A stretch of DNA of 64,000 bases, from positions 1 through 64,000 of the forward strand of contig NZ_FNIR01000018.1 of assembly GCF_900103975.1 (NCBI RefSeq). Direction: 5' to 3'. Shown here one piece after another: positions 49,706 through 64,000 of this stretch. The notes beneath the pieces were generated by a model. It ran no database searches. It saw only the letters and a list, made by a program, of their open reading frames with translations, and had not been told where the DNA came from. The translations under genes were made by a program, and so were the position numbers. This DNA is from Klenkia soli. GTDB lineage: Bacteria; Actinomycetota; Actinomycetes; Mycobacteriales; Geodermatophilaceae. How positions within the stretch are numbered: position 1 is the stretch's first letter; the number at the start of each line of letters is the position of its first letter.

Positions 49706-50428
49706 GTGGCGCTGCCCCGCAACGACCCCGCCCAGTACGACCAGCTCGCCGACCAGTGGTGGGTGCCGGCCGGCGGGTTCGCGATGCTGCACTGGCTGGC
49801 CGCCTCCCGCGCCGAGCACCTGCCGCCCGCGCCCTCACCCGACGCCGTCCTGGTCGACCTGGCCTGCGGCGGCGGGCTCATGGCCCCGCACGTGCAGCGC
49901 CTGGGCTACCGGCACGTCGGCGTCGACCTCGGTGCCGCCGGGCTGGGGCTGGCCCGCGAGCACGGGGTGGGCGCCGTCCGCGGGTCGGTGCTGGCCGTGC
50001 CGTTGGCCGACGGGTGCGCCGACGTCGTCGTCTGCGGCGAGATCCTCGAGCACGTCGAGGACGACGTCGCGGTGCTCGCCGAGTGCGCCCGGCTGCTGAA
50101 GCCCGGCGGGGCGCTGGTGATCGACGCGATCGCGGACTCCTGGCTGGCCGGGCCGGTCGCCGTGGGCATCGCCGAGCGGATCCCGGGCGGCCCGCCGCCG
50201 GGCATCCACGACCGCGCCCTGTTCGTCGACCGCGCCCGGCTGCTGGCCGCGGCCGACCGCCTGGGCCTGGACCTGCGGCTGGTCGGGCTGCGGCCCTCGG
50301 TGCGCGACCTGGTCGCCTGGAAGCGGGGACGACGCCCGGGCGTGCGCATGGTGCCCATGCGCTGGAGCGGCATCCTCTTCGCCGGGTACGGCCGGAAACG
50401 CCCGGGCCCCGTACCGTCGGAGAAGTGA
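49706..50428 (+). CDS. Class I SAM-dependent methyltransferase (UbiG-like)
   Basis: 240 residues from GTG 49706. Motif I is VLVDLACGGGLMAPHV, with post-I HVGVDLGAAGLG, motif II ADVVVCGEILEHVEDD and motif III LLKPGGALVID. The fold matches O-methyltransferases of the UbiG/Coq3 kind. It ends 22 nt before a type III polyketide synthase on the same strand, so it probably methylates the synthase product. Confidence 0.85.
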   Translation: MALPRNDPAQYDQLADQWWVPAGGFAMLHWLAASRAEHLPPAPSPDAVLVDLACGGGLMAPHVQRLGYRHVGVDLGAAGLGLAREHGVGAVRGSVLAVPLADGCADVVVCGEILEHVEDDVAVLAECARLLKPGGALVIDAIADSWLAGPVAVGIAERIPGGPPPGIHDRALFVDRARLLAAADRLGLDLRLVGLRPSVRDLVAWKRGRRPGVRMVPMRWSGILFAGYGRKRPGPVPSEK

Positions 50429-50450
50429 CGCTTCCCCAGGACCCGGCCCG

Positions 50451-51479
50451 ATGAGCGGCGCCGTCATCACCGGCGCGGGCCGAGCCCTGCCGGCGTCCTA
50501 CACCCAGGACGAGGTGTGGGAGGGCTTCTTCGCCCAGCACTACACCGGTCTGCGGTCGGCCCGCCGGGTGTTCTCCGCGGCCGGGGTGCGCACCCGGCAC
50601 GCCGTGGTCAACCCGGTGCACGAGGACATCTCCGGGTGGGGCACCGGCGCCCGCATGGAGCGCTACGTCGACGAGGCGCTGCCGCTGGGCAAGCAGGCCG
50701 TGGCCGCAGCGCTGGACTCCGCGGGCCTGGCCCCCGGCGACGTCGGCCTGTTCGCCGTCGTCACCTGCACCGGGTACGCCACCCCGGGGCTGGACATCCG
50801 GCTGGCCAGCGACCTGGGCATGCCGGCCGGCGTGCAGCGGCTGCTGGTCGGCCACATGGGCTGCTACGCCGCGCTGCCCGGGCTCGGCGCGGTCGGCGAC
50901 TACGTGACCGCGCGGTCCCGGCCGGCGGTGCTGCTGTGCTGCGAGCTGACCAGCCTGCACGTGCAGCCGGCCCGCGACGACCTGTCCCAGGTGGTCGCGC
51001 ACGCGCTGTTCAGCGACGCCGCCAGCGCCGTGGTCCTCCAGCCCGACGCCCGGCGCGGCATGCGGGTCGCGGCCACCGTGGCCCGCACCGACCACTCGAC
51101 CGCCGACCACATGACCTGGGACGTCACCGACCTCGGCTTCAAGATGGGGCTCTCGCCGCGGGTGCCCGACGTCCTGGCCCGGCACGTGGGCGACGTCGTG
51201 CAGGAGCTGCTGGACACCGCCGGGCTGCGGGTCGAGGACGTCGCCGGGTGGGCGGTGCACCCCGGGGGGCCGCGCATCCTGGACGTCGCCCGCGACCAGC
51301 TCGGGCTCACCGAGGAGCAGATCGCGCCCTCGCGGCGGGTGCTGGCCGAGCACGGCAACTGCTCGTCGGCGACCGTGCTGCTGGTGCTCGAGGAGCTCGG
51401 CGAGGTGGACGGACCGGTGGTGGCCATGGCCTTCGGGCCGGGGCTGACGCTCTACGCGACCCTGCTGCTGCCGGCCTGA
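50451..51479 (+). CDS. Type III polyketide synthase (chalcone synthase superfamily)
   Basis: 342 residues from ATG 50451. The Cys-His-Asn triad fits exactly: Cys138 in VGHMGCYAALPGLG, His270 in GWAVHPGGPRILD and Asn303 in EHGNCSSATVLLVLEEL. The His-Asn spacing of 33 equals that of plant chalcone synthase, and the C-terminal GFGPG loop appears as AFGPG. Such enzymes extend an acyl-CoA with malonyl-CoA and cyclise it to resorcinols, pyrones or naphthalenes. It could be misread as KAS III, but the HPGGP and GFGPG-like motifs argue for type III. The product is unknown. Confidence 0.85.
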   Translation: MSGAVITGAGRALPASYTQDEVWEGFFAQHYTGLRSARRVFSAAGVRTRHAVVNPVHEDISGWGTGARMERYVDEALPLGKQAVAAALDSAGLAPGDVGLFAVVTCTGYATPGLDIRLASDLGMPAGVQRLLVGHMGCYAALPGLGAVGDYVTARSRPAVLLCCELTSLHVQPARDDLSQVVAHALFSDAASAVVLQPDARRGMRVAATVARTDHSTADHMTWDVTDLGFKMGLSPRVPDVLARHVGDVVQELLDTAGLRVEDVAGWAVHPGGPRILDVARDQLGLTEEQIAPSRRVLAEHGNCSSATVLLVLEELGEVDGPVVAMAFGPGLTLYATLLLPA

Positions 51480-51515
51480 CCGCTGGGTCGACCGGGCGGG
51501 GGCAGGGCCCGGTCT

Positions 51516-51551
51516 GGCGGTGGGACGGAACGAGTCCGTCTCCCATCCGCC
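51516..51551. terminator. Hairpin between the polyketide synthase and AAC genes
   Basis: Interrupted stem GGCGG-TGGGA-CGGA / TCCG-TCTCCCA-TCCGCC with loop ACGAG, in the 203-nt gap between convergent genes. Confidence 0.65.
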
Positions 51552-51682
51552 GGGAGGATCGTGGCCCCTGCGCGGTGCGGCCGCCACTCCCGTCGACGCC
51601 AGGTGGGACGGGGTGCATCGCGGGTCCCACGTGCCCTGCGGGTCGGCACGCTCCGCAATCGGTCGCGCACAACCGGCATGGC

Positions 51683-52219
51683 TCACCAGAGGCTGCCGCG
51701 CCGCCAGTCGCAGATCAGCGGGAGGTCTCCGGTGCCCGCGTCGATGCCGGGGACCGGGAGGACGTAGACCCAGCTGCCGTCGCCGTCCACGACGCCGTCG
51801 GGGGTGAGGCAGCGCAGCGGACCGGTCCACCGGGTCCACCCCCGCGCGTCGTAGAGCGCGGCGCCGTCGGCGCTGGCCGCGAGGGCGCCGAGCTCGAACC
51901 CGCCGCGGATCAGCCGCTCGACCTCGGCCATGAGGGCGCCGGCGATGCCCTGCCGACGGGCCGCGGCGGCGACGGCCACCGCCTCGACGTACCCGGTGCG
52001 CAGCGTGCGGCCGCCGGCGATCAGCTGGCGCCCCACCACGGCGGCGTGGCCGAGCAGCTCGCCGTCGCGCGAGGCGAGCACGTGCACCCCGCCGAGGGCA
52101 TGACCCCAGTCCTCGTCGTCGAAGGGGTCGTCGCCGGCGAAGGCGCCGTCGAGGAGGTCGCGCAGCGCGGTGCGCTCCGCCGCGGTCAGGTTGGCGGTCG
52201 GCAGGGTGCGCAGCTCCAC
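51683..52219 (-). CDS. aac(2'): Aminoglycoside 2'-N-acetyltransferase, AAC(2') family
   Basis: 178 residues from GTG 52219. The GNAT fold matches mycobacterial AAC(2')-I from end to end as I recall it: LLDGAFAGDDPFDDEDWGH, LGGVHVLA, TLRTGYVEAVAVAAAARRQG, ELGALAASADGAALYDARGW and the diagnostic C-terminus LICDWRRGSLW. These enzymes acetylate the 2'-amine of gentamicin-, tobramycin- or kanamycin-type drugs, and in mycobacteria are intrinsic chromosomal genes. Resistance here is untested. It lies 4 nt downstream of an FMN reductase on the same strand. Confidence 0.85.
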   Translation of the reverse strand: MELRTLPTANLTAAERTALRDLLDGAFAGDDPFDDEDWGHALGGVHVLASRDGELLGHAAVVGRQLIAGGRTLRTGYVEAVAVAAAARRQGIAGALMAEVERLIRGGFELGALAASADGAALYDARGWTRWTGPLRCLTPDGVVDGDGSWVYVLPVPGIDAGTGDLPLICDWRRGSLW

Positions 52220-52223
52220 CCGG

Positions 52224-52793
52224 TCAGTCTCGCGGGCCCCGGAGCTTGCCGGTCAGGCGGGCGATCTCGTCGAGCATCGCGGTGGCGCCGGCCTGCAGCT
52301 CGGCGTTGCCGGTGAACACGCCGTCGTCGTCGATGAACTGGGTGAAGAACGGGATCGTGGCGGCCTCGACCACGGGGACGACGCGCAGCGCCCCGAGCAC
52401 CGGCTTCAGCGCGGCGGCCGAGCGCGTGCCGGCGGAGACGCCGCCGTAGGAGACCAGGCCGGCGGCCTTGTCGGCCCACTCGTGGAAGAGGAAGTCGATG
52501 GCGTTCTTGAGCCCGCCGGGGATCGAGTGGTTGTACTCGGGGAAGACGAACACGAAGGCGTCGGCCCGGGAGACGGTGGCCGACCAGTCCTTGGTGTGCT
52601 GCTGCGTGTACTGGCCCAGGCGCGGGTGGTTGGGCTCGTCGAGCACCGGCAGGCCGGCGTCGGCGAGGTCGACCAGCTCGACGTCGAACCCGCCGTGGGC
52701 CTCCGCCTGCTGCGCGACCCAGCGGGCCACGGCGATGCCCTTGCGGCCGGGGCGGGTGCTGCCGGCGATCACCTGCAGGACGGGACGGGACAC
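52224..52793 (-). CDS. NADPH-dependent FMN reductase
   Basis: 189 residues from GTG 52793, preceded by AGGAG. Flavodoxin-like fold with the phosphate loop IAGSTRPGRKG and FPEYNHSIPGGLKNAIDFL. It reduces FMN or quinone-like substrates. Forms a pair with the downstream aac(2') gene. Confidence 0.88.
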   Translation of the reverse strand: MSRPVLQVIAGSTRPGRKGIAVARWVAQQAEAHGGFDVELVDLADAGLPVLDEPNHPRLGQYTQQHTKDWSATVSRADAFVFVFPEYNHSIPGGLKNAIDFLFHEWADKAAGLVSYGGVSAGTRSAAALKPVLGALRVVPVVEAATIPFFTQFIDDDGVFTGNAELQAGATAMLDEIARLTGKLRGPRD

Positions 52794-52856
52794 GGGGGAG
52801 CTCCTGGGGACGACGCTTGGTTGAGCCCTCAAGCTACTCCGTGGACCGGTCCGCCC

Positions 52857-54635
52857 TCACACGGCCGCCGGGGTGCGTCGGAGCGCACGGGGCGGTGCCG
52901 GGCGGGGGAAGAGGTCGTCGACCGGCTGGGGGCGGCCGAGGAGGTACCCCTGGCCCAGCGGCGCCCCGAGGGCGAGCAGCTGGTCGCGCTCGGCCGGGGT
53001 CTCGATGCCCTCGGCGACGAGGGTGGCGCCGGTCTCGCCGGCGTAGGCGATGAGCGCACGGGCGATGGCCCGACGGTTGCGGTCGGTGTCGACGTGCCGC
53101 ACGAAGGCGATGTCGAGCTTGATCACGTCGGGGCTCAGCTCCGTGACGTGCTGCAGGCTGGCGTACCCCGAGCCCGCGTCGTCGACGGCGATGCGGATGC
53201 CGCGGTGGCGCAGGTGCCCGGTCAGCCGGGCCAGGGACCGGTAGTCCGGCACCGCCTCGTGCTCGGTGATCTCCAGCAGCAACCGGTCCCCGGGGACCGA
53301 GGTGAGGAGGTCGTGGGTGGCCGGGTCGGCCAGTGCCCGCGGGGAGACGTTGACCGACAGGTAGCAGGTGTCGGGGATGCGCGGCAGCAGCTGCAGTGCT
53401 GAGGCGAGCGCGGCCTGCTCGAGCTGCGGGCCCAGCTGCAGCCGGGTGGCCTCGGCGAAGACGAGGTCCGGGCGCAGGGCTCCGCCGTGCACGTCGGTGA
53501 ACCGGGACAGGGCTTCGTAACCCACCGGGTGGCCGGTGGCCAGGGCGACGATCGGTTGCAGCACCGTGGTCCGGCGCGAGCCGTCGAGCAGCGGGGCGAG
53601 GACCGCCCGGTCCCCGTCGCTGCGGCGACGTTCGGCGCGGTGGTGGTCGATCCGGCCGGCGACCAGCCGGGCCAGCACCTGCAGCGTCTCGGTGCGCGAC
53701 GCGCTGTCGGCCACCGTGGTGCCGGCCCCGTCCAGCGCGCAGAGGGTGCCGTGCACGCTGCCGTCCTCGAGCGTGACGGGGACCCCGTTGTAGGAACCCG
53801 CGCGCAGGGTCGGGGAGACCGGGATGGCCGAGGCGACGGGGTGCGCGGCGACGTCGGGGATCGAGGAGGGCAGGTCGCCGCGCAGCACCGCCGCGCAGTA
53901 GCTGGCCGCGGTCGGGACGAGCATCCCCGGGCTGAGGCCTGTCGTGCCGGGGCGGGCGCTGACGTGGCTGACCGTCTGCCGTGCGTCGTCCAGGTGGGAC
54001 AGGAAGGCGACGTCGACCCCCAGCGCGGCACGGGCGGCGTCCACGAGCTGGTCGATGGAGGCGGCCGTCCCCAGCGGTCCACGCTCTGCGGTCTCGGTGA
54101 GCCCCAGGCCCATGGTGACCAGGCCGTCCAGGGCGTCGCGTCGGCCGATCATCCGGCGGCGGACGGCGACGACCAGCCCCGCCATCCGGGCCAGCGCCAG
54201 CACCTCGGCCTCCTCCTCGGCGCTGAACGCCCGCTCGTCGGGGCTGCGGGTCAGGTACAGCGCGCCGAGGACGGTGTCGTCGACGGTGATGGGCGCCGCC
54301 AGCAGCGCTCCCATCGCGACGTGCCCGACGGGGAACCCGACCGAGGCCGGGTGGTCGGCCATCCGGGTCAGGCGCAGCACGGTCCCCGCCAGGACGACCC
54401 CGACCAGCCCGACGGGTCGGGGCAGGTGCGGCATGGCGCCGACCTGCTCCTCGGTCATGCCCTGGTGGGACAGGGCGGTGGGCGTGCCGTCGGCGGAGAC
54501 GAGCAACGCGATGCCGAACGGCGCCGACAGCAGCCGGCGGGCCGTGCTCACCAGCTCGTCGAGGATGCCGGGCTCGCCCGGGACCTCGGCGATCGCGACC
54601 ATCGAGCGCAACGCGTCCAGCCGCCCGGTAGTCAT
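52857..54635 (-). CDS. GAF-GAF-EAL cyclic-di-GMP phosphodiesterase
   Basis: 592 residues. Two GAF-like sensor domains occupy about 20-165 and 185-335. The C-terminal EAL domain (about 350-580) keeps the catalytic set: GYEALSRF, YLSVNVSP, LLEITEHE, VDDAGSGYASL, IKLDIAF and AEGIET, with a final GQGYLLGRP. It should hydrolyse c-di-GMP to pGpG. No membrane segments. Its ATG overlaps the upstream chemoreceptor stop by 4 nt, so the two are co-translated. Confidence 0.9.
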   Translation of the reverse strand: MTTGRLDALRSMVAIAEVPGEPGILDELVSTARRLLSAPFGIALLVSADGTPTALSHQGMTEEQVGAMPHLPRPVGLVGVVLAGTVLRLTRMADHPASVGFPVGHVAMGALLAAPITVDDTVLGALYLTRSPDERAFSAEEEAEVLALARMAGLVVAVRRRMIGRRDALDGLVTMGLGLTETAERGPLGTAASIDQLVDAARAALGVDVAFLSHLDDARQTVSHVSARPGTTGLSPGMLVPTAASYCAAVLRGDLPSSIPDVAAHPVASAIPVSPTLRAGSYNGVPVTLEDGSVHGTLCALDGAGTTVADSASRTETLQVLARLVAGRIDHHRAERRRSDGDRAVLAPLLDGSRRTTVLQPIVALATGHPVGYEALSRFTDVHGGALRPDLVFAEATRLQLGPQLEQAALASALQLLPRIPDTCYLSVNVSPRALADPATHDLLTSVPGDRLLLEITEHEAVPDYRSLARLTGHLRHRGIRIAVDDAGSGYASLQHVTELSPDVIKLDIAFVRHVDTDRNRRAIARALIAYAGETGATLVAEGIETPAERDQLLALGAPLGQGYLLGRPQPVDDLFPRPAPPRALRRTPAAV

Positions 54636-56179
54636 CCGAGGATCGCCCGGGTGACCGCGACCTGCTCGGTCAGCACCCCGCCGATGACGGCCTGGGTCTC
54701 GTTGATCGTCTCGATCACGGTGCCGATGGACGCCAGGGCGGCCACCACGGCGTCCACCTGCTCCTGGATCGCGGTGATCTTGTCCGTCACGTCGGTGGTG
54801 GCCACCGCGGTCTCGCGGGCGAGCTCCTTGACCTCGTTGGCCACGACGGCGAAGCCCTTGCCCGCCTCGCCGGCGCGGGCGGCCTCGATGGTGGCGTTGA
54901 GGGCCAGCAGGTTGGTCTGGGCGGCGATGCTGCTGATGGTGTGGGCGACCTGGCCGACCTGCTGGCTGGACTCGCCGAGCTGGGCGACGACCCGGTTGGC
55001 CTCGTCGGCCAGGGTGCGGCCCTGCCCGGCCACGTCGGTCGCGGACAGCACGTTGCGCTCGACCTCCTCGATGGAGATCACCAGCTCCCGGCCCGCGGTG
55101 CTCAGCTGCTCGGTCGCGGCGATCCGGTCGAGGGCCTGCCCGAGCAGGAACGCGGTGTTGCGCAGCGCGGCCTCGCGACCCGGGGACAGCACCATCGTCC
55201 AGGTGGCGAAGAAGTCCATCGTGCCGATGATCTCGCCGCCGCAGACGATGGGCAGGCAGACGCCGGACTTCACGCCGGCCTTCTGGGCGACGGGGGCCCG
55301 CACGCAGTCGGTCATCTGCCCCAGGTCGGGGACGAAGAAGAGGTCCTTGTTGCGCCAGGTCCGCCCGGACAGGCCCACCCCCGGGGCGAAGGTGGCCGAC
55401 AGGGTGACGGCGCGGAACTCCGGCCCCACGTCGCCGGACTCCCGCTCGAAGCGCAGCACTCCGGCCGAGGGGTCGACCCGCCAGAAGGAGCCGTAGGCCC
55501 AGCCGAAGCCGCTGCGGATGCTGTCGAGGGCCATCCGCAGGGCGGTCTCGGCGTCGCCGGCGGTGGTCAGCTGCTGGAGGACCTGGGTGACGGTGGCGAC
55601 GTCCTGGGCGGTCTTCTGGTCGGCGGCGACCGCCTGGAAGCGGGCGATGGCCTGGGAGACCAGGGTGCCCACGCAGCGCAGGGTGGCCAGCCGCCGGGGT
55701 GAGGGGGTGAGCTCCTTCATGCAGAAGAAGTCCATCGTGCCGGTGACCTGGCCGTCGGCGAACAGCGGGAAGCAGATGCCCGAGCGCACGCCCACCCGCA
55801 GGGCGACCGGGGCGCGCACGCAGTCCTTCATCTCGCCGAGGTTGGCGGTGACGACGAGGTCCTTCGCCGCCCAGGCGCGGCCGGACAACCCGACGCCGCG
55901 GGCGAAGGTCGCCGTCGCGGTGACCCGGGCGAACTCGTCGCTGACCGAGCCGCTCTCGGAGGAGAACCGCAGGGTGTCCGTGGCGGGGTCGATCACCCAG
56001 TGGGAGCCGTAGGCGTAGCCGAACGCCTGGCGCACCGCCGTGAGGGCGGCGACCACGGCGCCCCGGGTGTCGGTGGCCGCGGCCAGGGCGGTGATCACCG
56101 CGGTCACCGCGTCGACGTCCTCGGTGTGGTCCTCGACGAGAGTGCCCACGGCCGACCGCGAACCACGACTGCTGAACAT
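54632..56179 (-). CDS. Soluble methyl-accepting chemotaxis-type protein with two GAF domains
   Basis: 515 residues from ATG 56179. Two tandem, similar GAF domains (about 25-165 and 190-330) share GYAYGSHW / GWAYGSFW, GVGLSGR and KDCVRAPVALRVGVRSG / TDCVRAPVAQKAGVKSG. Next comes the signalling coiled coil with tip NATIEAARAGEAGKGFAVVA followed by NEVKELA. There is no membrane segment or HAMP, so it is cytoplasmic. No che genes are nearby; it may signal instead to the coupled EAL protein. The conserved Cys in both DCVRAP stretches could bind a ligand or cofactor. Confidence 0.88.
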   Translation of the reverse strand: MFSSRGSRSAVGTLVEDHTEDVDAVTAVITALAAATDTRGAVVAALTAVRQAFGYAYGSHWVIDPATDTLRFSSESGSVSDEFARVTATATFARGVGLSGRAWAAKDLVVTANLGEMKDCVRAPVALRVGVRSGICFPLFADGQVTGTMDFFCMKELTPSPRRLATLRCVGTLVSQAIARFQAVAADQKTAQDVATVTQVLQQLTTAGDAETALRMALDSIRSGFGWAYGSFWRVDPSAGVLRFERESGDVGPEFRAVTLSATFAPGVGLSGRTWRNKDLFFVPDLGQMTDCVRAPVAQKAGVKSGVCLPIVCGGEIIGTMDFFATWTMVLSPGREAALRNTAFLLGQALDRIAATEQLSTAGRELVISIEEVERNVLSATDVAGQGRTLADEANRVVAQLGESSQQVGQVAHTISSIAAQTNLLALNATIEAARAGEAGKGFAVVANEVKELARETAVATTDVTDKITAIQEQVDAVVAALASIGTVIETINETQAVIGGVLTEQVAVTRAILG

Positions 56180-56681
56180 GGAGAACCCCGCTCTGCCCCG
56201 CCCGGTGGACCTGCTCCTCCGGTCAGGGTCTCTACGGCCGTCACCGCCGGGCGTTGAGCCGAAAGCGAAGATAACGACCCAGAATCGGCCGCAATGGGTG
56301 ATGCCGCGTTCCGGAACCGCCGTTGCACAGGCCCACGCCCATCGATGCACCGGCTGGACGCTCGGCTCGTCGTCCGGAGCGGGGAGGTCGCTCAGCCGCC
56401 GCACCGGGCTGGTGAGGCAGAACGACGCCCGGGATCACGTCGATCGTGTCCACCCGGCCAGGCCGGCCCCGGGGGTAGAGGTCGACCCGCTGCCGACCGC
56501 CACCCCGGCGGCGACCGTGCTGCCGAGGAACACCGGACGACGGGGCAACCGGTCCGCGTCTGCAGGGCGACGAGCGGGAACGCGACGACGGTGACCGCGC
56601 CGCCGACCGCGCTGACGGTGTCCTCCGCCCGCAGCGGTCGACCGTCCTCTGCATGGGCGCTGGCCGACCTGGGCTGCTGGG
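56180..56681. other. 502-nt gap with possible decayed MFS remnant, ending at the tRNA scar
   Basis: No convincing intact gene. On minus, 56557-56616 reads VSAVGGAVTVVAFPLVALQT, which looks like the first membrane helix of an MFS exporter, but the frame is lost on both sides. The rest shows host-like base composition and no recognised motif. Confidence 0.35.
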
Positions 56682-56726
56682 TGGAGCGGGTGACGAGAGT
56701 CGAACTCGCACTGTCAGCTTGGGAAG
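56682..56726 (-). tRNA. Truncated tRNA-Gly(CCC), 3' half only: attachment-site scar
   Basis: Read on minus, it runs CTTCCCAAGCTGACAG (anticodon loop TTCCCAA, anticodon CCC), then T-arm GCGAG-TTCGACT-CTCGT, then CACCCGC-T-CCA. The T stem pairs and the CCA end is encoded. The 5' anticodon strand should be near TCAGC but is GGTCC, and no D-arm or acceptor 5' strand follows, so this is not a functional tRNA. Tyrosine integrases commonly use exactly this segment as att core. Confidence 0.88.
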
Positions 56727-56802
56727 GACCAGTGCGGCGCGCGAAAGCCCAGGTCAGAGTGCCTGTTTCGGCTTGTCACCCCAGCTGTGACCTCGGAATG
56801 AC

Positions 56803-57810
56803 CTAACTCTTCGGGCCGGGGCGCTCGGCGTGCGGGGTTGTCGCGGCGTCCGGCGCGGTGCCTGCGGTGGCCTTGCCTGGGCGCGGGTGTCCCGCCCCCA
56901 TCAGTTCGGCGATGCCGGACCGGTAGGAGGTGACCGTGAACTCGGGGAACCGGGTGGCGAACTTGGTGGCCTCGAAGATGTTGTCCTGCCGGTACCGGGG
57001 GAGCAGTTCGCCGGCTTCCCGGATGGCGGGGTTGAACAGTGCACCGAGCGTGAAGAGCGCAGCCGGGACGGTGCGGTAGCCGAGGTCGGTTCCGACGCTG
57101 GCGGAGGCGACCTCGACGATCTGGGCGTAGGTCAGCCGGTCGGTGTCGATGGGCAGGTGCCAGGTCTGTCCGTAGGCGTCCGCGGTGTTGCCGATGAGTC
57201 CCATGGCGCGGCTCGCGTCGGGTGTCCAGATCAGGGACCGCTGGGTGTGCGCGTCCAGCGGGATCATGGCGCGCCGCCCCTGCGCGAGACGGTCGAGGAT
57301 CGCGGTGTTGGTCAGGCTCTGTGTCCTGCCGGGTCCGTAGAACTCCGGCGCCCGGCAGATGACCGCGTCGACGTCGCCGGCGTCCATGGCGTTCTGCAGC
57401 ATGGTGGTGATCCGTGCGCGGACGACGGCCTTGCGTCCCGTCGGCTGGAACGGGGTGTCCTCAGTCTGGGGTGCCGCGGTCTTGGGGTACATGTAGGTGT
57501 TGTCGAAGAACACCAGCTTGGTGCCATGCGCGCTGCAGGCGGCAATGGTGTTGGCCATCATCGCAGGGAACTGCCGCTCCCACAGCGCCGAGTTCATGGG
57601 CAGGCCGACGGTGAGGTAGGCGATCTCGCTGTCCGCGACGGCGGCGCGGGTCGCGTCGGCGTCGGTGAGGTCGGCAGCGGCGAGCTGGTCGGTGTCGTGG
57701 ACCTTCTGAGGCCGGCGGCTGACCAGGCGGAGGTCGGGGGTGACGTGGTCATGGAGATAGCGGGCGAGCTCGGTGGCGATCTGGCCGTTGGCCCCGAGGA
57801 TGGTCTGCAT
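56803..57810 (-). CDS. NAD(P)-binding epimerase/reductase-like protein
   Basis: 335 residues from ATG 57810. Rossmann start MQTILGANGQIATELARYL, then VSRRPQKVHDTD and a short-chain-like core NTYMYPKTAAPQTEDTPFQP (Tyr present; the usual YxxxK is not clear). C-terminal tail Ala/Pro-rich. It resembles atypical SDR reductases of the NAD-dependent epimerase family. It is divergent from a TetR regulator with two operator copies between, the pattern of a repressor's target gene. First gene inside the island. Confidence 0.8.
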   Translation of the reverse strand: MQTILGANGQIATELARYLHDHVTPDLRLVSRRPQKVHDTDQLAAADLTDADATRAAVADSEIAYLTVGLPMNSALWERQFPAMMANTIAACSAHGTKLVFFDNTYMYPKTAAPQTEDTPFQPTGRKAVVRARITTMLQNAMDAGDVDAVICRAPEFYGPGRTQSLTNTAILDRLAQGRRAMIPLDAHTQRSLIWTPDASRAMGLIGNTADAYGQTWHLPIDTDRLTYAQIVEVASASVGTDLGYRTVPAALFTLGALFNPAIREAGELLPRYRQDNIFEATKFATRFPEFTVTSYRSGIAELMGAGHPRPGKATAGTAPDAATTPHAERPGPKS

Positions 57811-57826
57811 GCTGTTCCTCCGACTT

Positions 57827-57847
57827 GATGTATGCGGTGCTCACTTC
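57827..57847. promoter_or_regulatory. TetR operator copy 1 (21 bp)
   Basis: GATGTATGCG...CTCACTTC, a dyad of GATGT-N11-ACATC type with one mismatch in the right arm (ACTTC). It lies 17 nt upstream of the epimerase-like start. Confidence 0.55.
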
Positions 57848-57861
57848 GCACGGTAGGCCGC

Positions 57862-57882
57862 GATGTAAGCAGAGTCAACATC
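57862..57882. promoter_or_regulatory. TetR operator copy 2 (21 bp)
   Basis: GATGTAAGCA...TCAACATC, with exact GATGT / ACATC arms, 35 nt (start to start) from copy 1, in the divergent promoter region before the TetR gene. Confidence 0.65.
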
Positions 57883-57950
57883 TGCCGTAGGGTGGGCGCG
57901 GGCATGACCGGCAACCATCGCCGCGTCGCATCTGGTGTCGGGAGGGCGAG

Positions 57951-58541
57951 ATGGCGTCGACGGTGAAGACGACCTACCACCACGGAGACCTGCGGGCTGC
58001 TCTCATCGCTGCGGCCATGGAGATGCTCGAGCGGGGGCAGGAGTTCTCCATCCGGGCCATCGCGCGGGAGACCGGCGTATCGCCGACGGCTCCCTACCGT
58101 CACTTCCCCGACCGCGATGCTCTGGTGTCGGCGTTGGCCGCGCAGGGCCTGCGCGACCTCGAGGCGAACCTGACGGCCGACCGCCCTCTGCCGGACTCGG
58201 TGGAGGGACTGGCCGATCTGGGGGCTGCCTACGTCGGGTTCGCGCTGCGTCGGCCGGCGCTGTTCCGGCTGATGTTCGGCGACGAGTGCGACCGCGAGAG
58301 CGAGGAGCGGGTCCGAGCGGCAGCCGCGGTCCATGAGCTGCTCGCCACTGCCATCACCCGGGTCTTCCCCGACTCCGACCCTGTCGACGTCGCCCTCGGT
58401 GGGTGGGGCCTGGTGCACGGCATGGCGTGCCTCTACCTGGATCGCAAGCTGACCGGTCCGTCGGTGGATGTCGTGTTGGCCCAGGTTCGCGCGTCCTTCC
58501 TCGCTGTCGTCGACGCACGGTCGTCGACCCAACGAGGATGA
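57951..58541 (+). CDS. TetR/AcrR family regulator with WHG-type C-terminal domain
   Basis: 196 residues from ATG 57951, preceded by GGGAGG. HTH IRAIARETGVSPTAPYRHFP at residues 35-54. The C-terminal GGWGLVHGMACLYLDRKL is the TetR_C_WHG signature. It probably represses the divergent epimerase-like gene, itself and the DJ-1 gene through the three 21-bp sites. Inducer unknown; the enzymes suggest a reactive carbonyl or electrophile. Confidence 0.88.
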   Translation: MASTVKTTYHHGDLRAALIAAAMEMLERGQEFSIRAIARETGVSPTAPYRHFPDRDALVSALAAQGLRDLEANLTADRPLPDSVEGLADLGAAYVGFALRRPALFRLMFGDECDRESEERVRAAAAVHELLATAITRVFPDSDPVDVALGGWGLVHGMACLYLDRKLTGPSVDVVLAQVRASFLAVVDARSSTQRG

Positions 58542-58590
58542 CCGTCTCCCGGGTGACCCTTTGACCGGCGAGGCGCGGGGCGCTACCGTC

Positions 58591-58611
58591 GATGTGAGCA
58601 ATGCAAACATC
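58591..58611 (+). promoter_or_regulatory. TetR operator copy 3 (21 bp)
   Basis: GATGTGAGCA-A-TGCAAACATC, the most symmetric copy (left arm GATGTGAGCA, right arm GATGTTTGCA when reversed). It lies 24 nt upstream of the DJ-1/PfpI start. Confidence 0.7.
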
Positions 58612-58634
58612 GAGGCGGGGAGCGAGACCGAACC

Positions 58635-59321
58635 ATGACCCGGCGCATCCTGGACGTCGTCACCAACGTCGGGCACTACGACGACCCCAGCCATCCCACC
58701 GGGCTGTGGTTGTCGGAGCTCACCCATGCCTGGCACGTCTTCGAGGACGCCGGCTTCCAGCAGACGCTTGTCAGCCCCGCCGGCGGCGCCGTCCCCCTCG
58801 AGCCCCGGTCGCTCAAGTTCCCCAACTACGACAAGACCGCCAAGGCGTGGCGAGCCGACCCGGCCAGGATGGCCCTGCTCGAGAACACGCTGAGCCCCGA
58901 CCAGGTAGACCCCGCCGACTACGAGGCCATCTTCTTCACCGGCGGCCACGCCGTGATGTACGACTTCCCCGGCAGCGAAGGCCTCCAGCGCATCACCCGC
59001 GAGATCTATGAACGCGGCGGTGTCGTTGCGTCGGTCTGCCACGGGTATTGCGGACTGCTCGACACCACCCTCAGCGATGGGACCTACCTGATCGCCGGCA
59101 AAACCATGACCGGTTTCGCCTGGCAGGAGGAAGTCCTGGCTCGCGTGGACAAGCTGGTGCCCTACAACGCCGAGCAGCGCGCCAAGGACAGGGGTGCCCG
59201 CTACACCAAGGCCAAGCTCCCGTTCGTCTCCTACGCGGTGGTCGACGGCAACCTGGTCACCGGTCAGAACCCCGGATCGGCGAAGGAGGCCGCCGAGAAG
59301 GTCGTCGCGGCGCTCCGCTGA
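58635..59321 (+). CDS. DJ-1/PfpI family protein (Hsp31-like)
   Basis: 228 residues from ATG 58635. Nucleophile elbow with Cys135-His136 in VVASVCHGYCGLL, the paired acid Glu28 in TGLWLSELTHAWHVFEDAG, and FFTGGHAVMYDFP. This Glu/Cys/His set is that of Hsp31-type glyoxalase III and deglycase-like proteins, which remove methylglyoxal-like electrophiles. Its promoter carries the third TetR operator. Confidence 0.88.
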   Translation: MTRRILDVVTNVGHYDDPSHPTGLWLSELTHAWHVFEDAGFQQTLVSPAGGAVPLEPRSLKFPNYDKTAKAWRADPARMALLENTLSPDQVDPADYEAIFFTGGHAVMYDFPGSEGLQRITREIYERGGVVASVCHGYCGLLDTTLSDGTYLIAGKTMTGFAWQEEVLARVDKLVPYNAEQRAKDRGARYTKAKLPFVSYAVVDGNLVTGQNPGSAKEAAEKVVAALR

Positions 59322-59329
59322 GGATTGTT

Positions 59330-60490
59330 CTAGCGCCTCGGCCCAGGACGGTTGTTGATGCGGGGACGTCGCGACGTCGGGGTCGGCGGCTGCGGTGGTC
59401 GGATGCGGGCCTCGAGGGCGCGGGCGATCTCGGCGTCGCGGTCGTCGTTGGCGTGCTGGTAGATCAGCGCGGCGTCCGGGCTGGCGTGGCCGAGCCGGCG
59501 CATGAGCTCCTTCGTGCTCGCCCCGGCCGCCGCGGCGAGGGTGGCCCCGGTGTGCCGCAGCTCGTGCAGCCGGACCGGGCCGAGCCCGACGGCGTCGGCG
59601 GCGCGGCGGAAGGTCTTGCCGAAGTTCGCGACGCTGAGGAACCCGCCGCTGCGGGTGCCGAACACGAGCGCGTCCGGGGTGTCCGGCACGTACCGGTCTA
59701 TGTGCTTGAGCAGCGCGAGGCGGACGCTGGTGGGCAGGGCGACCGTGCGGTGCCCGGCCTCGGTCTTGGGCTCACCGACCACCCAGCGGCCGTCGTAGTA
59801 GCGCACGGCCCGCTCGATCCGCAGCCGTTCCCCGCCGTCCAGGACATCGGACCGGCGCAGCGCGGCCGCCTCCCCGAACCGGAGTCCAGCGAACGTGAGG
59901 ACGAGGACCAGCGCGCTGTACCGCTCGGTGCGGGTCGACCGGCCGAGGTGGTCGGCGATGGCGGTTGCCTCGGCGGCGGTCAGCGCACGGGACGGCCGGG
60001 CCGCCTTCGGGGTGGACGCCCCGCGCAGCTTGCACGGGTTGGCCGGGATCGCGTCGTCGGCAACGGCGACGCCCAGGACGGCGCGCAGCAGGCGGTAGCT
60101 CTGGGCGAGAACGGCCGGCCCCGTCGTCGCGGCCGCGGTGGTGTGCCAGCTGCGCACCATCGCAGGGGTGACGTCGCCGACCTCGACGCCGGTCCAGCGG
60201 TCGGCGAGGTGCAGCCGCCAGAGGTTGGCGTAGAGGACCCGCGTTGAGTCGCGAAGGTCCTGGCGCTTCAGGTAGTCGGCGGCGAACTTGTCGACCGTGC
60301 GACGAGCGCCCTCGGGTGCCCGCCACATGCGGCGGACGGCGTCGGTCTGCTGGGTGGCGGGCCAGACCCGGGCGTCGGCCTTGGTGGGGAAGGTGGCCGA
60401 CCGGCGCTTGCCATCAGGGCCGGTGCACCGGGCACGCCACTTGCCCGACGCCATCTTGTCGATGGCCCCGAAGGAGGCGCGGGACGCCAT
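59330..60490 (-). CDS. int: Tyrosine recombinase / site-specific integrase
   Basis: 386 residues from ATG 60490. AP2-like arm-binding N-terminus (SGKWRARCTGPDGKRRSATF), SAM-like core-binding domain (70-165), then the catalytic domain with Arg204 (AGLRFGEAA), His309-x-x-Arg312 (LHELRHTGATL), His335 (LGHAS) and nucleophile Tyr344 (ALIYQHAN). All key residues are present, so it is probably active. It presumably recombines at the tRNA-Gly core 2.6 kb away. Codons are less GC-biased than in host genes. Confidence 0.93.
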   Translation of the reverse strand: MASRASFGAIDKMASGKWRARCTGPDGKRRSATFPTKADARVWPATQQTDAVRRMWRAPEGARRTVDKFAADYLKRQDLRDSTRVLYANLWRLHLADRWTGVEVGDVTPAMVRSWHTTAAATTGPAVLAQSYRLLRAVLGVAVADDAIPANPCKLRGASTPKAARPSRALTAAEATAIADHLGRSTRTERYSALVLVLTFAGLRFGEAAALRRSDVLDGGERLRIERAVRYYDGRWVVGEPKTEAGHRTVALPTSVRLALLKHIDRYVPDTPDALVFGTRSGGFLSVANFGKTFRRAADAVGLGPVRLHELRHTGATLAAAAGASTKELMRRLGHASPDAALIYQHANDDRDAEIARALEARIRPPQPPTPTSRRPRINNRPGPRR

Positions 60491-60502
60491 CGCGGCCGGC
60501 CG

Positions 60503-60724
60503 TCAGACCGCGGTGGGGGACGAGCCCGTCGAGCGCACGGTCCCGGCGTCGAGGTAGGCGTCGAGGTCCGACTGCCAGAACCGCAGGGAACGGCCGGCCT
60601 TGGTGTGTGTGAGCCGGCGCTCGGCGACGAGCCGGTAGACCAGGCGCCGCCCGCACCGGAGGTAGGCGGCCGCGCTGTCGATGTCGTGCAGGCGGTCGGC
60701 GGCGCGGTTGCTGGCGGTGGTCAA
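60503..60724 (-). CDS. xis: Excisionase-like MerR/HTH_17 DNA-binding protein
   Basis: 73 residues. TTG 60724 is preferred as start because AGGAGG lies exactly 6 nt upstream; GTG 60751 is in frame but has no such site. The protein has the helix-turn-helix/wing IDSAAAYLRCGRRLVYRLV and WQSDLDAYL, typical of small excisionases that direct integrase. It lies 12 nt upstream of int in the same direction. Confidence 0.8.
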   Translation of the reverse strand: MTTASNRAADRLHDIDSAAAYLRCGRRLVYRLVAERRLTHTKAGRSLRFWQSDLDAYLDAGTVRSTGSSPTAV

Positions 60725-60806
60725 GGGCTGCCTCCTGGCGCTGGTGCTCACCCGTGCGGTGTCGCGGGTGCGGTGGCCTGTCGCGCTCAGCAGGTGGCGT
60801 GGCGGT

Positions 60807-61397
60807 TCACCAGATGTCATCCCGGCCGGGGTGACGTAGGTGGTCGGGGTCGTGTGGGTCGGCGCGGGTGAACCTGGGTCGCTGTTGGTCGCGCCAGCGG
60901 ATCGTGCTCCACGCATCCCTGTCCTCGAGTGCCTCGATGAGGGACCGGAGCTCGTAGGCGATGCCGATCAGGTACTGGGCGTCGACGTGGTATCCGGAGA
61001 CCTGACGGGTGAGCTCGTGGATCAGCCCTCTCCACTCGCGGTTCCTCGGCTCTCGGCGTGGCTGCGGCCGGGGTGAGATGGCGGGGACGCGGACGATGCG
61101 TTCGACGACCTCGACCGCGCTCAGACCGGACGAGGCCGCGCGGCGTTGCTCCCAGGCCCGTTGCCGGCAGGAGGCTGAGCACCACTTCGGCACCGGCCCC
61201 CGAGGCTTCGGGGTGATGAGGCCACGGCACCATCCGCAGCTCACGGCGGCCCGACGGCGGTTCTCTGCGGGCGCGGCTCCAGCTGGCGTCACTGAGGCGT
61301 CGGCTGCGCTTGCCTGGTGGTGATCGACGGTTGCTTGACGTCGGCGCTCGCGCTCACGTCGGCGTTCCTGCTCGCGACGAGATTGTTGGCTTGGCAT
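60807..61397 (-). CDS. Hypothetical protein with CxxC...CxxxC zinc-finger, mobile-element associated
   Basis: 196 residues from ATG 61397; TTG 61475 extends it by 26. The N-terminus is Arg/Glu-rich (RREQERRRERERRRQ). A treble-clef-like zinc site follows (CGWCRGLITPKPRG...KWCSASCRQRAWEQ), then an alpha-helical C-terminus. I do not recognise a named family, but similar zinc fingers occur in actinobacterial integrative elements. The IS110 copy just upstream may have displaced its promoter or start. Confidence 0.65.
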   Translation of the reverse strand: MPSQQSRREQERRRERERRRQATVDHHQASAADASVTPAGAAPAENRRRAAVSCGWCRGLITPKPRGPVPKWCSASCRQRAWEQRRAASSGLSAVEVVERIVRVPAISPRPQPRREPRNREWRGLIHELTRQVSGYHVDAQYLIGIAYELRSLIEALEDRDAWSTIRWRDQQRPRFTRADPHDPDHLRHPGRDDIW

Positions 61398-61505
61398 GTG
61401 GTGCAGAGGCGTCACGCATCCCGAGCAGGTGTCACGACGAGTCGCCGGCACCCGAGATGAGCTCCTATGTGTCAACTGCCGCGAGGTGCGGCGCTGCCGG
61501 GTATC

Positions 61506-62549
61506 TCAGGCCTTGGTTGTGACGGGCGTTGATTGCTTCGCGAGGTCGGCGTGCATGGTGGTGTAGATCAGGTCGGAGAGTCGTCGCTTGAGGCAGCGGA
61601 GGGCTTCGCGGCCGGTCTTTCCCTCGGCGCGTTTGCGCTGGTAGTAGGCCCGTCCTTCGGTGTCTGCGCGGATCTGGGTGATGGCCATCGTGTAGAGCAC
61701 CCGGTTCAGCGTGCGGTTGCCGGCTCGGTTGAGTCGGTGGCGGCTGGTGCGGCCGGATGAGGCGGGGATGGGGGCGGTGCCGTTGGCGGCGGCGAAGGCG
61801 TGCCGGGATCGGTAACGGCGGATGTCGGCGAGCTCGCCGAGGATCGTGGCCGCGCCGACCGGGCCCACTCCGTAGAGGTCGGAGAGTCCGGTGTCGATGG
61901 TGTCCATCGTGGTGGTGATCAGGGCGGTGATTTCCTTGATCTGGGCGGTCAGCTCGGTGAGGCGGGTCAGTCGTCGTAGGGTGAGCTGAGCGCGGGTCCG
62001 GGTGTCACCCCGCAAGACATCGGTGGCGGCGGTGATGAACGTCGGTGCGGTCAGTCGCGGCACGGTCACCTGGTAGCCGGGGAGCAGGCCATGCAGCTCG
62101 GCGTGGGTGCGGTTGGCCAGGGCGGTGCGTTCGGCGACGAGCTGATTGCGGTAGTCGGCCAGTGCACGCAGGTCGGCGGCTTGTCCGACGGCCAGGCGCA
62201 CCGGTGGTAGGTCGGTCTCCCGGGCGGTGATCCGGGCTATGGCCAGGCAGTCCACGGGGTCGGTCTTGCCCTGCCCGGGCCGGCTGGACCGCTCCCTGGA
62301 GGTCAGCGAGGGCGGCACCTCCACGACCTGCATGCCGCCGGCCATCGCGAGTCGGATGGCAGCGCCGCGGCCGTAGTTGCCCGAGCCCTCGATCCCGACC
62401 CGGTCGACTGCGTGTTCGGCGAGTAGGGCCTGGAGTTCGTCGAACCCGGCCTCGGTGTTGGCCAGGTCGGTCACGACCAGCGGTCGCCCGACCGGGTCGA
62501 TGACGGCGACGGCCAAGGTGTCCTTGTGGGTGTCGATGCCGGCCAGCAC
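61506..62549 (-). CDS. IS110 family transposase (bridge-RNA-guided recombinase)
   Basis: 347 residues from ATG 62549. The N-terminal RuvC-like DEDD site is complete: Asp6 (GIDTHKD), Glu54 (GIEGSGN), Asp97 and Asp100 (KTDPVDCLAIAR). The C-terminal Tnp domain has YGVGPVGAATILGEL, GTAPIPASSGRTSRHRLNRA with the candidate catalytic serine, and NRTLNRVLYTMA. Length and residues fit an active enzyme. Members of this family recombine DNA using a bridge RNA encoded in the element's own non-coding end. Confidence 0.93.
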   Translation of the reverse strand: MLAGIDTHKDTLAVAVIDPVGRPLVVTDLANTEAGFDELQALLAEHAVDRVGIEGSGNYGRGAAIRLAMAGGMQVVEVPPSLTSRERSSRPGQGKTDPVDCLAIARITARETDLPPVRLAVGQAADLRALADYRNQLVAERTALANRTHAELHGLLPGYQVTVPRLTAPTFITAATDVLRGDTRTRAQLTLRRLTRLTELTAQIKEITALITTTMDTIDTGLSDLYGVGPVGAATILGELADIRRYRSRHAFAAANGTAPIPASSGRTSRHRLNRAGNRTLNRVLYTMAITQIRADTEGRAYYQRKRAEGKTGREALRCLKRRLSDLIYTTMHADLAKQSTPVTTKA

Positions 62550-62795
62550 GGTGACTCCTTCGCGGGGAGGTGGCTCGCGAAGACGGTGTCGGGGCGCAGC
62601 GCATGCATCTGCGGGCCGCGGGTGCCCATGCTCCTATCAGGCGTCGACCGCCCCGAACACCGAAGACGTCACCGGCGGGCAGTCATTGCGGAAGCCATGC
62701 CCAACCGCAGCAGGCAGCAAGAGGTAGAGCCTCACCGGTGACGCCCGCGAGCGCCCCGCCGGGGTGACGAGGCACCTCATTACCGCAGATGCATG
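62550..62795 (-). ncRNA. Candidate bridge-RNA region of the IS110 element
   Basis: In IS110-group elements the non-coding end upstream of the transposase encodes the bridge RNA. This 246-nt stretch has no gene. It contains a perfect 13-bp inverted repeat, CATGCATCTGCGG (62602-62614) and CCGCAGATGCATG (62783-62795). Exact element ends cannot be set without an empty site. Confidence 0.45.
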
Positions 62796-63136
62796 AGGTG
62801 TGTCGGGCTTGGGTGTGTTGCGTTTAGATGTGTGTCGTCTGACGTGTATTGCCTGGTTCCGCGATAACCGGTGGGTTTGCTGAAGCCCAGTCGAACGATC
62901 TGCACGGGTGTGCCGCATCTCCTCCCAACGTCGGCCGGGGCTGTCCGGCCGCGAAAGCTGGATCTCTGCGGGGGTTTCGGCTGACCGAGTTGCATGTCGC
63001 TGAATCGTTGCCGCCCGGCCGCCTGCGTTTGGCTCGCCCCGCCCGGGCCAGATGGATGGAGCGGCAACGCTCATCGGGTTAGCCGCCGGTCGCCAAGAGG
63101 GCGTCACGATGTGCGGCGCGACATAGTCCCGCAGTG
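62796..63136. other. 341-nt region with no recognisable gene
   Basis: Short ORFs on both strands lack coding bias and ribosome sites. I see no tRNA, repeat or domain. It probably contains the left end of the IS element and the upstream part of the XRE-ImmA promoter. Confidence 0.5.
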
Positions 63137-63172
63137 TTGCGATTATCGCAAGAGTGACGTAGTTTACGTCAC
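63137..63172. promoter_or_regulatory. Two perfect palindromes at the XRE-ImmA start
   Basis: TTGCGA-TTA-TCGCAA (63137-63151) and GTGACGTA-GTT-TACGTCAC (63154-63172) are adjacent, each with a 3-nt centre. The second ends on the base before ATG 63173. They look like operators for the HTH protein they precede, i.e. autorepression. Confidence 0.65.
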
Positions 63173-64000
63173 ATGCAGGCATCTGTGGTGACGGAGCGTG
63201 TTCGTCATGTCATTGAAGAGTCAGGGTTGGCGCACGGCGAGTTTGCGGCCAGGGCAGGTCTTGACTCCTCCAAAATGAGCAAGTCCCTGAGCGGAACGCG
63301 CCGATTTACATCGCTCGACCTTGCGAATATTGCAGAGGTTGGTGGGGTTTCGGTTGACTACCTTCTCGGTGTTCAATCACCCGAGCCTGCGCTGGCAGCA
63401 CGAGCCGCCTCAAAAGCAGAGGCTGTCCAAAGTGGGGCGATCGAAGAAGCGAGGCGTATTGCAAAATTTCGCCATGATCTTGACTTCGTATTTCAGCGTC
63501 AGCGCCCTGTCGCTGAGATTCGCCCAACTCGAGGTGGGGGCTACATCAAGCAGGGTGAGGCCCTCGCTGAGCAAGCCGCGAACTTGATGTCGAGGGCTGA
63601 CGGTCAAACTGTCATGGACCTAGAGAGCGACATCGAGCGGGTTTTTGGTTTCGACGTGGCTCGCGTTCCTGCGGGCAGGGACTGCGACGGGGTGGCGTGG
63701 AGAGACGAACATTGCGCGGTTATTGTCGTCAGTACCACTGATTCAGCCACGCGCCAGCGCTTTACAATGGCGCATGAATTGGGGCACCTGCTTGCCGAGG
63801 ATGATCAGGCGCTCCACATTGACCAGGACGTTATGCATGCCGCCGACAAGACGGAGAAGCGCGCGAATGTCTTTGCCGCTAATTTCCTAATGCCAGCCTC
63901 AAGGCTGCGCCGAGAATCGAAAGGCTGGAACTCGGGCGAGGCGAGCGATCTTGACTTTGCTCATTTGGTCATGGACCTAGGTGTGTCACCTAGCGCCCTT
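63173..64000 (+). CDS. XRE HTH-ImmA/IrrE metallopeptidase regulator (3' end beyond window)
   Basis: 276 codons stay open from ATG 63173 to the window end. The N-terminal XRE HTH (residues about 10-60) is GLAHGEFAARAGLDSSKMSK...DYLLGV. After a linker comes the ImmA/IrrE (DUF955) domain with zinc motif His201-Glu-x-x-His205 in MAHELGHLLAEDD and a third-ligand region EKRANVFAANFLMPASRL. Such fused proteins control phage or ICE genes by proteolysis of a repressor, or serve in toxin-antitoxin-like pairs. Codons are far more A/T-ending than in host genes, showing foreign origin. No ribosome site precedes the ATG, so it may be leaderless or start at GTG 63185. Confidence 0.88.
   Translation, partial: MQASVVTERVRHVIEESGLAHGEFAARAGLDSSKMSKSLSGTRRFTSLDLANIAEVGGVSVDYLLGVQSPEPALAARAASKAEAVQSGAIEEARRIAKFRHDLDFVFQRQRPVAEIRPTRGGGYIKQGEALAEQAANLMSRADGQTVMDLESDIERVFGFDVARVPAGRDCDGVAWRDEHCAVIVVSTTDSATRQRFTMAHELGHLLAEDDQALHIDQDVMHAADKTEKRANVFAANFLMPASRLRRESKGWNSGEASDLDFAHLVMDLGVSPSAL

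What the first reader, a model, noticed from the sequence alone, without database searches (positions are those of the whole stretch)
56682..64000. Genomic island inserted in a tRNA-Gly(CCC) gene; one junction is in the window
A 45-nt 3' half of tRNA-Gly from anticodon loop to CCA stands alone, with unrelated sequence in place of its 5' half. Immediately beyond it the base composition shifts and element genes begin (int, xis, IS110, XRE-ImmA). The half-gene's orientation predicts an intact tRNA-Gly with the identical core at the other end.
Basis: partly seen in the sequence, partly recalled or inferred. Interest (0 to 1): 0.75.

Follow-up and report, generated by a model that had tools for sequence, protein, structure and literature searches.

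The report
Mobile defence island in glycine tRNA gene
A 10.5-kb mobile DNA island carrying a probable virus-defence gene sits in a glycine tRNA gene of a Klenkia bacterium; its predicted far end was found just past the window, and related bacteria carry the same insertion machinery at the same spot with different cargo.

Summary
The finding is right. A 45-nt 3' half of tRNA-Gly(CCC) stands at 56682-56726. Its predicted partner, an intact minus-strand tRNA-Gly(CCC), lies at contig C5:67186-67259, 3.2 kb past the window end; 44 of the 45 shared bases match. The island is about 10.5 kb.

All 9 genomes of the genus (Klenkia) have this tRNA core. Three show a clean empty site, one has no such integrase, and five carry an island with a closely related integrase. 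Int, xis and TGACCT boxes at both ends are conserved; the interiors differ. Here it is XRE-ImmA/PIN-like plus a Swarozyc-type DUF4062 gene; elsewhere an ABC-3C pair, a type II restriction-like pair, a STAND-like NTPase or a relaxase.

Across Geodermatophilaceae, 29 of 38 integrase places have a tRNA-Gly 3' half beyond int, mostly CCC- or UCC-type by integrase clade.

Corrections: three cargo genes separate the half from int, and the DNA left of the half is not the ancestral neighbour. Excision and defence are inferred. This is a new member of a well-known kind.

The parts
56682..56726 (-). orphan 3' half of tRNA-Gly(CCC): left junction of the island. The right junction, the intact tRNA-Gly(CCC), lies beyond the window at contig C5:67186-67259 minus (L003:3186-3259)
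56751..56805 (.). left inner end with three TGACCT boxes (at 56751, 56788, 56799): probable arm-type integrase sites. The right inner end, C5:67063-67174 beyond the window, has five
   Evidence: function inferred
56803..57810 (-). NAD-dependent epimerase-family gene, cargo
   Evidence: Pfam Epimerase 5e-17
57951..58541 (+). TetR-family regulator gene, cargo
   Evidence: Pfam TetR_C_33 7e-14 and TetR_N 8e-9
58635..59321 (+). DJ-1/PfpI-family gene, cargo
   Evidence: Pfam DJ-1_PfpI 9e-16
59330..60490 (-). int, tyrosine integrase, 386 aa
   Evidence: Pfam Phage_integrase 1.5e-16; PHROG integrase 2e-63; R204, H309, R312, H335, Y344 present in 33 of 33 aligned sequences, own included
60503..60724 (-). 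xis, excisionase-type HTH protein, 73 aa (start uncertain)
   Evidence: Pfam HTH_17; NCBIfam TIGR01764 1e-11
60807..61400 (-). 197-aa Cys-containing protein (P197), Zn-ribbon-like by eye; found in four of the five islands
   Evidence: no Pfam match, weak PHROG of unknown function; tblastn
61506..62549 (-). IS110-family transposase gene
   Evidence: NCBIfam NF033542 2e-60
63173..64000 (+). XRE-ImmA (HTH plus M78 peptidase) gene; continues past the window to C5:64315. Beyond it, still in the island: 177-aa PIN-like gene C5:64312-64845 (+) and Swarozyc-type DUF4062 gene C5:64948-66129 (+)
   Evidence: Pfam Peptidase_M78 3.5e-17 and DUF4062 2e-27; PADLOC RmrA 3e-21, capP 5e-21; PIN-like: no Pfam match, conserved FPDNTVL, LGEAE and DD stretches, PIN likeness recalled; DUF4062 against KpSwz in the PDB E 1.2e-56

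Best explanation
This is a 10.5-kb integrative genomic island of a Klenkia species, put into the tRNA-Gly(CCC) gene by its own tyrosine integrase. The integrase recombines an attP that carries the tRNA's 3' half with the anticodon-loop region of the gene. The right end thereby regains a whole tRNA, and the old 3' half is left as an orphan at the left end. Repeated TGACCT boxes at both inner ends are most likely the integrase's arm-type sites, and the small Xis protein most likely steers excision. Int, xis and the two ends are a conserved vehicle; the interior differs from strain to strain and is often antiviral. Here it holds a Swarozyc-type DUF4062 gene, expected to deplete NAD+ in infected cells, and an XRE-ImmA/PIN-like pair, expected to act as a toxin-antitoxin or phage-sensing pair. 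Shown: both junctions, empty sites, sister islands, cargo families. Inferred: excision, arm-site binding, defence function, mode of transfer.
For: Half and intact tRNA in the predicted place and orientation. Empty sites in 3 of 9 genomes of the genus, and sister islands with 90.7-96.4% identical Int at the same tRNA in 4 others. Conserved inner ends. Catalytic residues present. Int relatives next to tRNA-Gly halves in 29 of 38 places. Swarozyc relation; XRE-ImmA before the PIN-like gene in 9 of 9 relatives.
Against: No read or PCR evidence for excision. Fourfold-site identity of int to relatives (64-75%) is in the range of flanking chromosomal genes (65-82%), so recent movement is not shown. 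Orphan halves of two sister islands are decayed, which suggests long residence. The 2.5-kb block between half and int could hamper excision. Defence activity is untested, and the PIN assignment has no profile match.
Confidence: 0.9

Rival explanations
1. An old, now immobile island: inserted in a Klenkia ancestor, inherited vertically and lost in some species, its cargo turning over by ordinary recombination; int and xis no longer move it.
For: Int divergence matches that of flanking chromosomal genes; decayed orphan halves in G001 and G007; one derived base in the own orphan half.
Against: The five Klenkia Int reading frames are open and the catalytic residues intact. The int tree is star-like where the host tree groups G001, G005 and G007. 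Interiors differ among these close hosts.
Confidence: 0.3
2. The 45-nt half is a chance likeness or a simple tRNA duplication, unrelated to the element genes.
For: None found.
Against: 0 matches in 100 shuffles; partner in the predicted place and orientation; same layout in sister islands, and empty sites.
Confidence: 0.01
3. A decayed actinomycete ICE (AICE), prophage or satellite that has lost its replication, transfer or virion genes.
For: The int-xis arrangement also occurs in such elements: best plasmid hits include an 11-kb Micromonospora rosaria record with integrase and excisionase, and phage integrases reach 41% identity among the rows listed. The G005 island has a TrwC relaxase.
Against: No replication, transfer or virion family among the 11 own-island proteins scanned with Pfam. 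In G001, G004 and G007 none of the 8 cargo proteins scanned is one either.
Confidence: 0.25

Closest known systems
tRNA-gene genomic islands as catalogued by Islander (PMC4383910, passages read)
   Same: Tyrosine integrase, intact tRNA gene at one end, 3' fragment at the other, same orientation, anticodon-centred site (2083 of its 3919 islands).
   Different: Nothing in mechanism; this host, site and integrase lineage I did not find in the papers searched.
Actinophages that integrate in tRNA-Gly-CCC or -TCC (PMC10865867 Table 2, passages read: B22, E1, BritBrat, Spooky; Whitney, Kuwabara)
   Same: Same target genes, common cores of 42-51 bp, tRNA rebuilt.
   Different: Those are phages; this island shows no virion genes among the proteins scanned. 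Int identity to the 15 best phage records listed is 33-41%.
Swarozyc antiphage system (PMC13174449, abstract and passages read)
   Same: DUF4062 with E 1.2e-56 to KpSwz; the Glu aligned in KpSwz (E84 here) is kept in 8 of 8 sequences, own included.
   Different: Actinobacterial, with an acidic insert towards the C-terminus that the 7 relatives aligned lack; activity untested.
Defence islands of E. coli (PMC10121019, search listing and start of abstract only)
   Same: Defence systems clustered in islands.
   Different: Different phylum; here one integrase lineage and one site over a genus.

Membership tests
tRNA-gene integrative genomic island (Islander criteria) | tyrosine integrase gene between the two tRNA copies | tested here: met
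tRNA-gene integrative genomic island (Islander criteria) | intact tRNA at one end, 3' fragment downstream, same orientation, length 2-200 kb | tested here: met
   10.5 kb
tRNA-gene integrative genomic island (Islander criteria) | uninterrupted site in relatives | tested here: met
   G003, G006, G008
tRNA-gene integrative genomic island (Islander criteria) | excision as a circle | not testable with these tools
   no reads or DNA at hand
AICE or other conjugative element | replication or transfer genes, relaxase | tested here: not met
   none among 11 own-island proteins scanned with Pfam; a relaxase was found only in G005
prophage or phage satellite | virion, packaging or helper-hijacking genes | tested here: not met
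   five of six own-island proteins scanned with PHROGs matched integration, regulation, metallo-protease, DNA metabolism or unknown-function families, the PIN-like one none; the 210-aa frame, IS110 and the three att-proximal genes were not scanned there
Swarozyc | DUF4062 domain with the conserved Glu | tested here: met
   matching E84 to the paper's E97 is by alignment, its numbering was not checked
Swarozyc | C-terminal auxiliary domain as in KpSwz | tested here: inconclusive
   the alignment runs over residues 3-270; the last stretch, 327-374, is weak
Swarozyc | NADase and antiphage activity | not testable with these tools
   bench test needed
XRE-ImmA / PIN toxin-antitoxin pair | two-gene unit conserved as a pair | tested here: met
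   9 of 9 relatives, three of them with weak XRE-ImmA matches of 2e-8 to 4e-7
XRE-ImmA / PIN toxin-antitoxin pair | second protein is a PIN nuclease | tested here: inconclusive
   no Pfam match; conserved acidic motifs

The most novel reading that the evidence does not exclude
A dedicated shuttle lineage, mostly for defence genes: one integrase module specialised on tRNA-Gly genes across Geodermatophilaceae. Its arm sites change with the integrase (TGACCT, TGACCA or TGACCC by clade) and its target moves between the CCC and UCC isoacceptors, while the interior is swapped as a unit between fixed ends.
Probability: 0.4. Interest if true: 0.5.

Novelty: new member of a known kind. Interest (0 to 1): 0.35.

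Why it matters
It gives a precisely bounded island with five natural cargo variants at one site in one genus. That helps find defence genes by position: four of the five interiors hold recognisable or likely defence genes (one of them only by a weak match), so the unnamed 828-aa and pentapeptide genes of the Leaf380 island become candidates. The clade-wise change of the arm repeats with the integrase offers natural pairs for testing how integrases read arm sites. The island itself is ordinary.

Tried and rejected
Chance likeness and simple duplication were rejected. Rfam gave one hit over 50000-64000, mir-976 at 60367 (28.5 bits against a gathering score of 100), taken as chance. I considered that the odd base at 56699 is the old chromosomal allele, which a crossover in the anticodon loop would leave at the orphan. 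But the other 11 of 12 copies matched in the genus carry A (the decayed halves of G001 and G007 were not matched), so change after insertion is the better reading. Recent horizontal transfer of int was tested by fourfold-site identity and not supported; the tree comparison is suggestive only. Searches for tRNA-Gly + integrase + genomic island + anticodon loop, Klenkia + genomic island and a five-term cargo query returned no paper; Geodermatophilaceae + integrase listed six papers, none on such islands by title. That covers only the held open-licence library. The 2002 paper on sublocations of tRNA sites is not held.

Rows left out: L053 was replaced by the longer L073 of the same place. L068 and L069 (partial Int) were left out of the tree and L070-L072 used as outgroup. 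L056 and L063, whose halves are atypical or decayed, got no target label. In the repeat-pair script the own region was left blank because its half lies elsewhere, and the own ends were read separately in the same call. The reductase comparison lacks G001, where that gene was not found near the tRNA.

Full report
The observation. The 45 nt at 56682-56726, read on the minus strand, are the 3' half of a tRNA-Gly with anticodon CCC, from the anticodon loop to CCA. ARAGORN does not call a gene there. With 3 mismatches allowed, the 46-nt string occurs once in the window and in none of 100 shuffles.

The prediction. A search of the window's own genome (25 contigs, 4.76 Mb) found exactly one further copy, at C5:67186-67231, same strand, 10,504 bp to the right. 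ARAGORN finds there an intact tRNA-Gly(CCC), C5:67186-67259 minus. The shared 45 nt differ at one base, 56699.

Relatives. The genus has 9 genomes in the collection, own included; all 9 have this tRNA core, 12 copies in all, and the same methyltransferase gene lies beside the intact tRNA in the 8 others. One search names four: Klenkia sp. PcliD-1-E (G005), K. taihuensis DSM 45962 (G007), K. brasiliensis DSM 44526 (G001) and Modestobacter sp. Leaf380 (G004, placed in this genus by the collection). Matching names to handles rests on equal contig lengths and positions. In G003, G006 and G008 a reductase gene lies about 70-120 nt from the tRNA core on the other side: an empty site. G002 has no Int match but a 1.2-kb spacer. 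G006 is only 73% complete, but its site itself was read.

The islands. Four relatives carry an integrase with 90.7-96.4% amino-acid identity to this one at this tRNA; with the own genome, five of nine. In the four, int's stop lies 77-78 nt from the tRNA half, and the last TGACCTA box contains int's stop codon. In the own genome a 2.5-kb block with epimerase, TetR and DJ-1 genes stands between, with CTA at both of its ends; it is not matched in the fetched stretches of the other four. The orphan halves of G007 and G001 have 5 and 13 mismatches in 40. If those islands excise, the restored tRNA gene should be damaged; that is inference. The 197-aa gene next to xis is found in G001, G004 and G007 but not in the G005 stretches. 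Own and G007 share int to that gene at 92.6% over 2139 nt.

Ends. TGACCT or its complement occurs 3 times in 134 nt at the left end, 5 times in 146 nt at the right end, 7 times in the 10,179 nt between, and 29 times in 52,000 nt of chromosome. The box pairs align in all five islands. Binding by Int is inferred; an N-terminal arm-binding part of such integrases is recalled.

Cargo. The own island has an IS110 transposase, XRE-ImmA, a 177-aa PIN-like protein and a DUF4062 protein. XRE-ImmA also matches the PADLOC families RmrA and capP at about 3e-21 and 5e-21. The PIN-like protein has relatives at E up to 1e-20 in 9 of 295 other class genomes, each directly after an XRE-ImmA gene, three of these with weak matches. 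A DUF4062 relative at E up to 1e-60 was found in 1 of 295 other class genomes. The own DUF4062 protein matches KpSwz of the PDB at E 1.2e-56; a 2026 preprint reports this family as antiphage NADases named Swarozyc (PMC13174449, abstract and passages read). G001 has the PADLOC candidate pair PDC-M68A/B (3e-94, 4e-219) with ABC-3C and DUF2326 domains. G007 has a C5 methylase and a type II restriction-like ATPase (4e-137). G004 has a 2135-aa AAA/NACHT protein with a weak Avs1b match (2e-6) and two large proteins without a PADLOC match. G005 has a TrwC relaxase (4e-84) and a larger interior, apparently on two contigs, that was only partly fetched. A 671-aa frame of G001 and a 210-aa frame at C5:66428-67060 had no match.

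Integrase family. Among 112 Geodermatophilaceae genomes 35 have 38 places at E up to 1e-60. I read the DNA beyond int at all 38. In 27 a tRNA-Gly 3' half with at most 9 of 40 mismatches lies within about 3 kb of int's stop, 16 of them within 130 nt. G001 (13 mismatches, same position) and the own island (half outside the fetched piece) make 29. The nine misses are L057-L060, L064, L068 and L070-L072, best scores 15-20 mismatches; L070-L072 are only 36-41% identical. L058's genome has an exact core copy about 3.6 kb from int, just outside the piece read. An Abi_2/AbiD gene (Pfam 2e-55) lies between half and int in L044, with alike frames in L043 and L046. On the Int tree the target label (14 CCC, 12 UCC rows) needs 2 changes against 8.8-9.0 in shuffles, 0 of 500 as low; near copies inflate that. 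A repeat pair TGACCN-N5-TGACCN lies within 200 nt of int's stop in 17 of 37 regions (own region left blank; own ends carry such pairs at 56788 and 67063). Its sixth base follows Int clades with 2 changes, 0 of 200 shuffles as low, over 17 rows. The mononucleotide-shuffle expectation of 0.01 regions is a weak control, and 20 of 37 regions lack a strict pair.

Vertical or horizontal. Fourfold-site identity of int to the four relatives is 64-75%; for two flanking chromosomal genes it is 65-82%, so recent spread is not shown. Occupied genomes do not form a clade on a rpoB-gyrB-methyltransferase tree of 8 genomes (3 changes; all 500 shuffles do as well), and the int tree is star-like where the host tree is not. 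Both readings stay open.

Known kind. Islander lists 3919 such islands in a search of 2168 genomes, 2083 with anticodon-centred sites (PMC4383910, passages read). Actinophages with tRNA-Gly-CCC and -TCC cores of 42-51 bp are in print (PMC10865867, passages read). This is a new member of a known kind.

Noticed in passing
window 52857-56179: EAL-type and GAF/MCP genes stand between the reductase gene (the empty-site neighbour) and the orphan half; the MCP protein has an 88% identical paralog elsewhere in the own genome (C18), so this block looks like a second, separate insertion or duplication.
   Followed up: partly
window 61506-62549: IS110-family transposase gene inside the island, next to the 197-aa gene; the ends of the insertion sequence were not mapped.
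   Followed up: no
window 47344-47440: tRNA-Val(GAC) call of 97 nt, long for a tRNA-Val; not examined.
   Followed up: no
G004 (L017/L018), between reductase gene and orphan half: A remnant of another integrase (pieces 42-43% identical) lies left of the island in Modestobacter sp. Leaf380, as if an older island had used the same tRNA.
   Followed up: no
G060 contig C12:467876-508542: Four exact tRNA-Gly(UCC) 3' cores in one direction with two integrases of this family: looks like a tandem array of islands.
   Followed up: no
L047 (G084): Inside the CCC clade this integrase sits beside a UCC-type half, and the place of its repeat pair reads TGTCCG/TGTCCC: a possible single target switch with changed arm boxes.
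   Followed up: partly
L019-L021 (G005, Klenkia sp. PcliD-1-E): The sister island there carries a TrwC relaxase and a weak ParB-like match and may span two contigs (over 45 kb to the end of the first), so the same integrase may move much larger DNA.
   Followed up: partly
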